Assembly (NCBI GenBank): GCA_003665825.1
Contig: QPFY01000006.1
Span: 1,302,001-1,366,000 of the forward strand
Source of the DNA: Microbotryum silenes-acaulis
Taxonomy: Eukaryota > Basidiomycota > Microbotryomycetes > Microbotryales > Microbotryaceae
Direction of reading: 5' to 3'
Length of the DNA: 64,000 nucleotides
The notes beneath the pieces are model-generated. The model made no database searches. It saw only the letters and a list, made by a program, of their open reading frames with translations, and was not told where the DNA came from. The position numbers and the translations under genes are program-made. Numbering within the stretch: position 1 is the first letter of the stretch; each line of letters opens with the position of its first letter. Below, piece by piece: positions 4,228-11,425 of this stretch.

Positions 4228-5112
4228 TGTTGAATGTGGACTGTAGGGCTTATCGGAATTTGGCGTAGCGACCGCTAGGGCTACTAGTGGAGCGTCGACG
4301 TGGCAAGGATGCGACGGACGGTCGACAGGAGAAGTCGTGAGGCGGCACTGGCGCGGTCTGATGAGACGGACGCGGTGCGGCTGGACGATCTGTTCTCTAC
4401 CGAAGATTAGCTGTCTGGCTAATGTTGGGAAGCGGTGTGATGATTGCAACTAACCTGTTCTCTACCGAAGATTAGCTGTCTGGCTAATGTTGGGAAGCGG
4501 TAGAGAAGAGGAAGAAAGGCACAGGGGCGCGCGAGTCGGGTGAGGTTCTAGCAAGGGGCCGCGCTAAGACAAACTGGGCTAGCACAATGCGAAGCTACAA
4601 GACCGAACTCCAAGCGGACCATCAAGGCTCTGAGGGGTGTCGTGTTGGACGATGTACACGAAGGGAAACTTATCTACCTTGGTCGAGTGTTGGTGAGCTG
4701 GGCAATCCGTAGCAACAAGATCCAGGTTGCGAACAACGGGCGTCATGCATGGGCGATACACTGGATGGCCGATGAGACATGAGGACGGTGGCGGCAAGCT
4801 GGCGGTGGCTAGGCGGAGGCAACGGCTTGGCAAGACAGGAGAAGTAGACCGACTAAGTTCCGATGTGGAGGCGGCGGCGCGCGAGCGTGAGTTGAACAGG
4901 CTGGCGCGGGAGCGGCGAACAAAAGGGGGGCGGCTTGGCTGTGAAGGCGAAGGCGCCGAGGCGAAAGACTGGGGGGCGGCTTGGCAGCGAGGGCAAAGGC
5001 GCCGAGGCGAAGGCGCGCGGCGGCGAAAGAGGCGCCGAAAACTGGGCGGTCCTGACAAACGGCGGCCCAAAGTTGAAGTGTTCGAACGCTTGTAGTAGAA
5101 TGAAATTCAACA
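4228..5112 (-). repeat. CopG 3' LTR (885 bp, long form)
   Basis: In element sense it starts TGTTGAATTTCATTCTACTA and ends CACATTCAACA. It contains GC-rich minisatellite-like repeats (about 4920-5060) and a duplicated 47-bp block that forms the intron-like cassette 4390-4454. Confidence 0.92.
4390..4454 (-). other. Intron-like LTR cassette (65 bp, GT...AG) in CopG
   Basis: In element sense the sequence reads AACAG then GTTAGTTGCAATC at the left border and GAGAACAG then ATCGTCCAG at the right. The body after the linker repeats the preceding LTR sequence. Removing it yields exactly the cassette-less LTR form seen at 15100 and 41335. Splicing is an inference; the tandem duplication is seen directly. 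Confidence 0.6.
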
Positions 5113-5227
5113 CCCCCCCTCGTTCGAACGCTTCCATAAGAGCACGAAGGGAGGTTGAGGCAAGTAGTGTAATCGACGAGGTAGTGACCGGTGTAGGGGG
5201 ACCTGGGCGCGGGGCGGAGGGGTAACT

Positions 5228-10900: not shown

Positions 10901-11425
10901 GTGACCTTGTGACCGGAGCTCGATGGTCTTGCCAAAGTGGGTGTAAATGCGCTCGCGGCGCAGCTGCATGACCGAGATCAGGTTTGCCGGAAGGTCGGGA
11001 ACGTAGTAGACGTTGCAGAGCTTGATCGTTCGTTGTTTCGACGTTCGTATCGTGATCGAGCCGGTTCCTTGGGCCATGAGTGATCCACCAGCGCCATCAA
11101 CGGCGATGTGCGACCGTGTGTGCCAGACGTCGAAGAGAGACGCGTCCTTGACCATATGGTGGGAGGCGCCCGAGTCGAGTACAAGAGTGTCGTTGGGAAG
11201 GTGGAGTTCACGGTTCGGTTGTAGACGACCTAGGAGTGCGGCGACGTTCACGCTGGGCCGAACTGTCACGCTCACAGTTGGGTCCAGGTGCGACGTGTCA
11301 AGTTGCGTCATGGTGCGGTAACGGCCTGTCGCATGGGCGAGGGCGGTCGTAACAGTGTGGTACAGGGCGATGAAGATGACGAAGACGATCATGACGGTCG
11401 CAAGTGACGATGGTGGTGGTGGCAT
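8000..11425 (-). CDS. pol: CopP Pol, intact Gag-less copia polyprotein (1141 aa)
   Basis: Complete copia-order enzyme polyprotein. Residues 8-30 form a hydrophobic, probably membrane-spanning segment. Next come the protease motif LDSGASHH (D84), zinc-binding H213, H218, C250 and C253, and the integrase catalytic triad D280, D342 and E378 with 35 residues between the last two. Reverse transcriptase follows, with QADVDKAYLHGE and LYVDDLLM, then RNase H (GYSDADWG, DAEYLALS, YGDNQGALA). There is no capsid domain and no CCHC knuckle. The ATG lies 24 nt after the primer-binding site, so gag is absent by structure rather than lost by a stop codon. Normal copia polyproteins, such as CopC here, carry about 340 residues of Gag first. 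The hydrophobic N-terminus is conserved in a diverged copy at 54393. It probably needs Gag in trans, CopG being the candidate. Confidence 0.95.
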   Translation of the reverse strand: MPPPPSSLATVMIVFVIFIALYHTVTTALAHATGRYRTMTQLDTSHLDPTVSVTVRPSVNVAALLGRLQPNRELHLPNDTLVLDSGASHHMVKDASLFDVWHTRSHIAVDGAGGSLMAQGTGSITIRTSKQRTIKLCNVYYVPDLPANLISVMQLRRERIYTHFGKTIELRSQGHLIGVASLIANKLSTLDATPIRTKVSPVAAAAIPLLTLHQRFGHLSLPNLRRAVSSGQLQGQTWTYSAAECKAFSCDTCKAAKATRTPFPTSDSRASQPLELVHSDVLTLPEPATNGERYVVTFIDDFSRKTWVSALRNKSQVFDTFQRWHTMIERSTGLKLRTLRTDNGGEYTSKAFIEYCSHHGITRQLTIPYTPEQNGRAERTNRTIIEGTIALLQHSGLPMTLWREALRYVVDTKNLSPHSAIDHKIPDAVWFGKPPSTANLRVFGCRAWHTTPQHKRAKLDPKAKPFIFVGIDNRSKAWTLYDPATTSFFQSRDVLFDEKVFPARDAPIDQPKPHMTSTTGDWTFVDAAHGSRAAPPPSLQPVVHENRFAALETNASDDTTIDMSDDGFDTPSDMSRAQFSPSPPASDVTDDSADPIDFLSCPSRAAAFAATTAGSSVVELEGPTEDPQNWSQAVKSGKEEIWRQAAADEFHSLATEYKCFTPVNSSSLPPGAKVLGSRFIFRTKRDQLGKITSHKGRLVAQGFSQRPGIDYDETFAPVAKFTSIRALIALAAAKNLHVHQADVDKAYLHGELKEDLYMRVPQGVDMPGKVLKLHRSIYGLKQAGRVWNEHIDLTLKSLNYRATAKDHCVYVRRDGDQYHYIALYVDDLLMVSPSEDEIERILNGLEQKYGIKRLGPAQYILGIQIKRQADKSIILSQEAYITSILRRFGMSDSSPASTPMAPNRQLEHSLAEPSKIAQTRYMQAIGCLLYAATGTRPDISYAVGYLARFSASPTPEHWTAIKTVFRYLCGTARLGLHYSSEQGKFSGFTGYSDADWGTCTTSSRSTMGYSFHLAGSVISWSSKVQNRVADSTTDAEYLALSHASKEAGHLQELLMELGIDTQAPVQLYGDNQGALALAKNPTLHHRSRHIRIREHFVRDQVRLGTIRVDYVDTKTMVADIFTKALGPLVFKVHCENLGLRG

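What the first reader, a model, noticed from the sequence alone, without database searches (positions are those of the whole stretch)
4228..11425. Candidate two-component retrotransposon: Gag-only (CopG) and Pol-only (CopP) copia elements
Seen: CopP has LTRs, primer site, polypurine tract and an intact 1141-codon Pol, but its ATG is 24 nt from the primer site, leaving no room for gag. CopG has LTRs and all priming signals around an intact Gag only. Each is present as two clearly diverged lineages (CopP at 8000 and 54393, CopG at 5228 and 58294) without frame damage. They share the primer site GGTTATGAGCC, the junction GAGGGGGGG-TGTTGAATT, AACA LTR ends, 5-bp target duplications and an identical 13-base LTR cassette start. 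Known: copia elements normally encode Gag-Pol together, as CopC does here. Inference: Gag and Pol are supplied in trans, a segmented retroelement. The alternative is that both are unrelated deletion derivatives of one lost parent.
Basis: partly seen in the sequence, partly recalled or inferred. Interest (0 to 1): 0.92.

Follow-up and report, generated by a model that had tools for sequence, protein, structure and literature searches.

The report
Fungal retrotransposon split into two elements
In an anther-smut fungus, one kind of jumping gene seems to live as two separate elements, one making only the capsid protein and the other only the enzymes, each multiplying recently although neither carries the missing half.

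Summary
Protein relatives place the host in Microbotryum (anther smut). The genome carries a Gag-only copia element, CopG (14 intact, near-identical copies at 10 sites with distinct 5-bp duplications; LTR pairs identical over 885 nt), and a Pol-only element, CopP (15 of 41 scored matches full-length without a stop; 11 of 18 checked elements with matching duplications). Both frames are under purifying selection (dN/dS about 0.16 and 0.14). No place examined joins this Gag with this Pol; in both trees they form clades without a fused member. M. saponariae has protein models of both kinds. So each part must be served in trans. That they serve each other is inferred from shared PBS, PPT-LTR junction, LTR ends and a 16-nt LTR motif (full-length CopC differs in each), one CopG copy with the CopP leader, and a third element, CopS (nine places, one read), lacking Gag core and Pol. 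Corrections: both CopG elements in the window are nested in CopP copies, and CopP at 54393 is cut by CopG. Each half has plant parallels (TR-GAG; Tos17, BARE2), as has a complex with an autonomous partner (wheat). A reciprocal pair without an autonomous member is the new variant.

The parts
11461..11688 (-). CopP-A 5' LTR (228 nt, without cassette); outer target duplication ACTTT at 11689-11693
11450..11460 (-). CopP-A primer binding site GGTTATGAGCC
8000..11425 (-). CopP-A Pol-only frame, 1141 codons: hydrophobic N terminus, PR, INT, SH3, RT, RH
7978..7986 (-). CopP-A polypurine tract
7670..7977 (-). LTR shared by the two tandem CopP copies (308 nt, with cassette at 7764-7777)
7287..7669 (-). 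PBS and start of the second tandem CopP copy, interrupted by CopG-A
6402..7286 (-). CopG-A 5' LTR (885 nt, cassette at 6616-6629); TSD CACTC at 7287-7291
5228..6397 (-). CopG-A Gag-only frame, 389 codons, ATG inside the PBS (6391-6401); weak Ty5-type Gag match and weak zinc knuckle
5113..5121 (-). CopG-A polypurine tract
4228..5112 (-). CopG-A 3' LTR, identical to the 5' LTR over 885 nt; TSD CACTC at 4223-4227
895..4227 (-). rest of the second CopP copy (frame 1145-4222 after the insertion), PPT 1123-1131, last LTR 895-1122; outer TSD ACTTT at 890-894
54054..57445 (+). CopP-B: LTR 54054-54360 (with cassette), PBS 54361, Pol frame from 54393 cut after 57445 by CopG-B
57446..60405 (+). CopG-B: LTR 57446-58289, PBS 58290, Gag frame 58294-59445 (383 codons), PPT 59553-59561, LTR 59562-60405; no target duplication in this copy (rearranged 3' flank)
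46257..50968 (-). CopC, full-length Gag-Pol copia used as comparison: PBS GGTTATAAGCC at 50968, 1539-codon fused frame, LTR ends TGTGAGGAATCC and GATCGAATA

Best explanation
CopG and CopP are the two halves of a division-of-labour copia retrotransposon. CopG RNA is translated from the AUG inside its primer binding site into Gag, which builds the particles. CopP RNA carries the same AUG as a short upstream frame, so Pol (protease, integrase, RT, RNase H) would be made at a lower level from the next AUG. Both RNAs, with the same primer site and the same PPT-LTR junction, would enter common Gag particles, be reverse transcribed and be integrated by the CopP integrase, which acts on the shared TGTTGAATT...AACA ends. 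CopS, with neither Gag core nor Pol, rides on both. Shown: anatomy, recency, independent insertions of CopG and CopP, selection on both frames, no joined element in the searches made. Inferred: packaging in common particles, partner identity, level of translation, how free Pol enters the particle (a conserved hydrophobic N terminus, absent from the four fused relatives checked, is a candidate).
For: CopG: 14 intact copies of 25 DNA matches (13 identical over the Gag frame, one slightly lower in score) at 10 insertion sites, each with its own TSD; all 14 LTR pairs 885/885 identical. CopP: 15 of 41 protein matches are full length without a stop, stop-to-stop frames 1141-1150 codons, so no Gag upstream in frame; 11 of 18 elements with both LTRs in view have matching TSDs. 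dN/dS: CopG A vs B 0.158 at dS 0.979; CopP median 0.137 over the 72 of 78 pairs with at least 10 synonymous changes. Census of 87 PBS places: 30 Pol, 23 Gag, 9 small, 25 unassigned, no joined element; 20 of the unassigned read: 15 CopP, 5 other, none CopG-like. CopG aligns to the Gag part and CopP to the Pol part of the same fused Microbotryum proteins; each forms a 100/100 clade without a fused member in trees of 22 and 20 chosen rows. CopC differs in PBS, PPT-LTR junction and both LTR ends. L021 is CopG-B with 33 of 33 nt of the CopP-A leader, in frame; CopG-B itself gives 21 of 33. CopS LTR: about 540 columns identical to the CopG-A LTR between diverged flanks. M. saponariae has protein models of both kinds. 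A 4-codon uORF in 39 of 42 CopP leaders.
Against: No expression, particle or transposition data. The PBS after an AACA end is not exclusive: 5 of 20 extra places read belong to other elements. The leader swap is one case, and leaders of other families are similar (L071, L057). The LTR mosaic could be gene conversion. In M. silenes-dioicae Gag-like proteins were found, but no CopP-like protein above 60% among the 120 listed. Full-length copia families are abundant and could serve either part; the LTR ends of only one of them, CopC, were read. The duplicated-stretch architecture of the LTR cassette is also in CopC, so only the linker letters are specific. Apart from the LTR start (12 of 13) and the 16-nt linker the LTRs of CopP and CopG do not resemble each other.
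Confidence: 0.6

Rival explanations
1. Two separate parasites: CopG (a TR-GAG-like element) uses Pol, and CopP (a Tos17-like element) uses Gag, of abundant full-length copia families such as CopC; they do not depend on each other.
For: Gag-bearing and RT-bearing frames of about 1400-1600 codons are common here; in plants both kinds of parasite are known or proposed to have complete partners (PMC3977881, PMC8704663, PMC3735527). The CopP leader resembles the CopC leader, and the CopC LTR has the same duplicated-stretch arrangement.
Against: CopC differs in PBS, junction and both LTR ends, whereas CopG and CopP share them. CopG and CopC Gag are only 23% identical. Pure parasites would not need conserved frames, yet dN/dS is about 0.15. 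Other full-length families were not read.
Confidence: 0.24
2. Deletion derivatives of a lost or unassembled full-length parent that still exists, or existed until recently, and mobilised both.
For: CopG and CopP map to complementary parts of the same kind of polyprotein; CopS shows that reduced derivatives arise and spread. The assembly has 88 contigs and collapsed repeats are possible.
Against: No joined copy in the own genome, and none of the 126 proteins fetched joins a CopG-like Gag (above about 27% over more than 100 residues) to Pol. Gag-only lineages A and B are separated by dS about 1; A groups with M. saponariae P0001 (92/99) and P0002 has a B-like second half (read), so the split looks older than the species (inference).
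Confidence: 0.13
3. Assembly or annotation artefact (collapsed repeats, nested copies misread as separate elements).
For: The region is a nest of repeats.
Against: Ten CopG sites and eleven CopP sites with distinct matching target duplications on many contigs; separate protein models in M. saponariae.
Confidence: 0.02

Closest known systems
Tos17 of rice (PMC3977881, whole text read)
   Same: Active copia element with an intact Pol frame and no gag at all, LTR, PBS and PPT intact, as CopP; a relative, RN304, lacks gag too.
   Different: Its proposed Gag donor, Lullaby, is a complete gag-pol element; no Gag-only partner with the same termini is described there. CopP is multi-copy and accompanied by CopG.
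TR-GAG elements, e.g. Arabidopsis AT5TE33540 (PMC8704663, listing and passages seen)
   Same: LTR element with a single Gag frame that transposes, as CopG.
   Different: A potentially autonomous relative of the same subfamily (AT3TE48480) is present; for CopG none was found.
BARE1/BARE2 of barley (PMC3735527, listing and passages seen)
   Same: A copia subfamily that cannot make Gag is packaged in particles of another.
   Different: BARE1 is complete; BARE2 has a gag region without start codon, CopP has no room for gag.
Wilma/Sabrina/WHAM cooperative complex of wheat (PMC9744471, sections 2.7 and 3.2 and passages read)
   Same: Gag-protease-only semi-autonomous families plus further variants, sharing only essential motifs, co-evolving over long times.
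   Different: Gypsy, with a fully autonomous member (Wilma). Here no autonomous member was found and the Pol carrier has no Gag.
Foamy virus Pol (recalled, not looked up)
   Same: Pol is made without a Gag fusion and must reach the particle by another route.
   Different: Both genes are on one genome.

Membership tests
Ty1/copia LTR retrotransposon | Integrase upstream of RT, RVT_2-type RT | tested here: met
   CopP: Pol_BBD, rve, SH3, RVT_2 in that order
Ty1/copia LTR retrotransposon | LTRs with TG...CA ends, PBS, PPT, 5-bp target duplication | tested here: met
Ty1/copia LTR retrotransposon | Gag and Pol encoded by the same element | tested here: not met
   no joined element found
TR-GAG (CopG) | LTR element with a single frame encoding Gag | tested here: met
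   the Pfam Gag match is below cut-off (E 0.007-0.014), the assignment rests on homology to Gag parts of fused proteins; no fold could be predicted
Gag-less parasite of the Tos17 kind (CopP) | Intact Pol, no gag, intact LTR, PBS, PPT | tested here: met
Gag-less parasite of the Tos17 kind (CopP) | Complete autonomous partner with the same recognition signals | tested here: inconclusive
Cooperative complex of the wheat WSW kind | An autonomous member sharing essential motifs | tested here: inconclusive
   none found with this PBS, PPT and these LTR ends among the places assigned or read; 4 PBS places were not read
Segmented (two-RNA) retroelement | Both RNAs in common particles and both needed for transposition | not testable with these tools
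   only indirect: shared signals, L021 leader swap, CopS mosaic

The most novel reading that the evidence does not exclude
An obligately segmented retroelement: two separately inherited, separately transposing LTR elements, one for the capsid and one for the enzymes, with no autonomous member left in the genus, kept together by purifying selection since before species split, and attended by a third, gene-poor satellite. It would be the retrotransposon counterpart of a multipartite virus.
Probability: 0.44. Interest if true: 0.87.

Novelty: new variant of a known kind. Interest (0 to 1): 0.74.

Why it matters
The non-autonomous LTR elements read about here lean on a complete helper. A pair in which neither member is complete, yet both stay intact and mobile, would show that selection can maintain genes that act in trans between selfish elements. 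It would make testable how Pol enters particles without a Gag fusion, how the Gag to Pol ratio is set from two RNAs, and whether genome segmentation can arise in retroelements as in multipartite viruses.

Tried and rejected
Joined Gag-Pol element: sought by DNA and protein searches of the own genome, a protein collection (compared in 39), motif census, RT family census and reading of unassigned places (20 of 24). Not found. Limits: first-look candidates scored were 25 of 25, 40 of 511, 40 of 1252, 106 of 340 and 150 of 677; admits only proteins of about 214-681 aa, so fused proteins could not appear there; one search lists 120 of 1180; 10 of 65 junction places stayed unassigned and were not read.

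Rows dropped: 28 loci were tried and 18 kept (L036, L043, L045, L047-L053 lacked a PBS, an LTR or a recognisable LTR end; L054 and L055 were not tried). In one search the CopP ratios use the 14 loci with an uninterrupted 1141-codon frame.

Frame decay: rejected (dN/dS). Hidden gag between PBS and Pol in CopP: rejected, only 20-24 nt separate PBS and ATG in 42 leaders.

Intron reading of the LTR cassette: possible (GTTAGT...AG in CopP, 80 nt, and CopG, about 66 nt; GTATGT...AG in CopC), but deletion between the duplicated stretches gives the same product, so sequence cannot decide. It is not used as evidence beyond the shared letters.

Structure prediction of the Gag never ran. A search of solved structures by sequence found nothing at E 1. 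Plasmid, phage and E. coli collections were not searched. Papers: searches for bipartite, two-component, segmented, split, multipartite or two-part retrotransposon gave 2 papers, off topic by title and abstract; Gag-only with Pol-only gave one, off topic; searches with Microbotryum listed 20 of 30 and 9 of 10 papers, none by title or abstract start about such elements; further listings. PMC10502011 has no occurrence of 'gag' in its main text (passages only). The library is open-access only, so this is no proof of absence.

Full report
Host and setting. The window lies at C6:1302001-1366000 of a 29.85 Mb, 88-contig assembly. The nearest proteins of CopG are from Microbotryum saponariae and M. 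silenes-dioicae, those of CopP from M. saponariae, so the host is a Microbotryum or a close relative (inference). The window is a nest of LTR elements.

Anatomy. Reading the minus strand with motif positions, CopP is an array LTR-Pol-LTR-Pol-LTR from 11688 to 895 with the duplication ACTTT on both outer sides. The first Pol frame (8000-11425) is intact. The second is interrupted by CopG-A (7286 to 4228), with duplication CACTC. On the plus strand CopP-B (54054-57445) is cut by CopG-B (57446-60405); behind CopG-B the CopP sequence does not resume, but in L019 the same insertion is complete with GTTAT duplicated and CopP resuming. Pfam gives Pol_BBD, rve, SH3 and RVT_2 for CopP; for CopG only a sub-threshold Ty5 Gag match (A and B) and a sub-threshold zinc knuckle (A). 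That CopG is a Gag rests on its alignment with the Gag part of fused Microbotryum Gag-Pol proteins and others (profile E-values down to 9e-27).

Copies and age. The DNA search with CopG found 25 matches: 14 intact A copies (13 with the full score, one slightly lower), one broken near-identical copy that shares the flanks of L001, one at 84%, seven at 74-75% and two shorter pieces. The 14 A copies fall on 10 sites (four are tandem pairs) with ten different target duplications, and all 14 LTR pairs are identical over 885 nt. Nineteen of the 25 have an intact Gag frame of 389 or 383 codons. For CopP, the protein search returned 41 matches (40 of 1252 candidates scored), 15 of them full length without a stop and one full length with a stop. 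Of 28 loci tried, 18 had both LTRs in view, and 11 of these have matching duplications; the other seven include the tandem array of the window. Both elements were therefore mobile very recently.

Selection. The first 41 codons of CopP are less constrained (ratios 0.41 to 0.74 in the five pairs shown), yet all 10 distinct N termini keep a strongly hydrophobic stretch (19-residue Kyte-Doolittle maximum 2.11-2.66), also present in the M. saponariae models, which start later (1.92), while the four fused relatives checked stay at or below 1.41 in their first 200 residues.

No joined element. The PBS with its LTR end occurs 87 times and the PPT-LTR junction 65 times; the reversed control patterns occur 0 times. 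Assigning each to known matches gave, for the PBS, 30 Pol, 23 Gag, 9 small and 25 unassigned, and for the junction 26 Pol, 20 Gag, 9 small and 10 unassigned. One of the 25 is the second CopP of the window; of the other 24, 20 were read: 15 CopP starts and 5 other elements, none CopG-like; 4 were not read. Four Gag matches have a Pol match within 8 kb on the same strand: one is CopG-A nested in CopP, one lies beside a CopP with its own LTRs and duplication GACTT, and two belong to a tandem CopG pair with its own duplication CCGGG. Other copia families in the genome have frames of about 1400-1600 codons that carry Gag or RT matches. Gag matches other than CopG copies are at most 27% identical.

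Relation to fused elements. CopG matches the Gag part, and CopP from about residue 76 the PR-INT-RT-RH part, of the same fused proteins. In a Pol tree of 22 chosen rows CopP and its two relatives form a 100/100 clade without a fused member; in a Gag tree of 20 chosen rows the four CopG-type rows do the same. The other clades agree between the trees, but the backbones are weakly resolved and long branches are flagged, so a common origin of the two halves is plausible, not shown. CopG A groups with M. saponariae P0001 (92/99); P0002 reads like P0001 in its first half and like CopG B in its second (alignment, by eye), a sign of recombination between Gag lineages.

Shared signals and mosaics. CopP, CopG and CopS share PBS, PPT-LTR junction, LTR start and AACA end. 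CopC has PBS GGTTATAAGCC, a junction of G residues followed by TGTGAGGAATCC, and the LTR end GATCGAATA. A linker of 16 identical nt lies in CopP and CopG LTRs and its core in the CopS LTR; with the preceding A it occurs 101 times in the genome, and all 7 places in the window lie in LTRs of these kinds. The CopC LTR has the same duplicated-stretch arrangement with a different linker, so the arrangement itself is not a mark of the pair. L021 is a CopG-B copy whose first 33 nt equal the CopP-A leader (33 of 33; CopG-B 21, CopG-A 20, CopP-B 16, CopC 15), in frame with Gag. The CopS LTR is identical to the CopG-A LTR over about 540 alignment columns, between an unalignable stretch and flanks of about 84%. 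Template switching in common particles would explain these; gene conversion could explain the LTR mosaic.

CopS. Nine places with 567-582 nt between PBS and junction led to L056: a 152-codon frame from the PBS AUG with only traces of the Gag N terminus, and a CopG-like 3' end. It lacks the Gag core and Pol, so both functions must come from elsewhere. Only one of the nine places was read, and target duplications of CopS were not checked.

Mechanism. CopG starts Gag at the AUG in the PBS. In CopP that AUG opens a 4-codon upstream frame in 39 of 42 leaders (52 codons in 3, two of them in the window array), with the Pol AUG 20-24 nt behind the PBS. It is an inference that this lowers Pol output; it would stand in for the frameshift or splicing by which fused elements make more Gag than Pol (recalled; for BARE splicing see the passages of PMC3735527). 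How unfused Pol enters the particle is open; the hydrophobic N terminus is a candidate.

Comparison. Each half has a plant counterpart: Tos17 and BARE2 lack Gag, TR-GAGs lack Pol; wheat has a cooperative complex around the autonomous Wilma. In each of these a complete partner is present or proposed. What is new here is a reciprocal pair without one found, in a fungus, with both frames under selection. The literature searches listed no such case, within an open-access library.

Verdict. Trans supply of both functions is well supported; CopG and CopP as partners of each other is the most likely reading (0.60).

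Noticed in passing
7764-7777, 6616-6629, 4442-4455, 54254-54267, 58061-58074, 60177-60190, 21161-21174; CopC LTRs near 46045-46120 and 50969-51040: LTR stretches duplicated around a linker that begins like a 5' splice site (GTTAGT in CopP and CopG, GTATGT in CopC) and end in AG in CopP and CopG (in CopC the A is the LTR end and, in the 5' LTR, the G is the first PBS base): possible LTR introns in three LTR families. 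In 7 of 18 CopP elements one LTR has the cassette and the other lacks it, some with LTRs otherwise identical.
   Followed up: partly
L056 (C37:15400-17060) and eight further places: CopS, a third small element with the same PBS and junction, a 152-codon remnant frame and an LTR that is a mosaic with the CopG-A LTR.
   Followed up: partly
L021 (C5:1599202-1603332): CopG-B copy with a CopP-type leader, still in frame.
   Followed up: yes
54393-57662: ORF of 1089 codons whose end is CopG LTR sequence: an annotation trap.
   Followed up: yes
G000:C6:1390937-1395589: CopP match split in two by about 1.2 kb, both parts reported in an open frame of 1560 codons, one part with a TGA; what is inserted was not read.
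   Followed up: no
L057, L062, L065, L066, L071: Five other elements or remnants with LTR end AACA and PBS GGTTATGAGCC but other internal sequence.
   Followed up: no
8000-11425, residues 1-41: Hydrophobic, possibly membrane-spanning N terminus of CopP Pol, conserved in M. saponariae and absent from the four fused relatives checked.
   Followed up: partly
   Followed up: no
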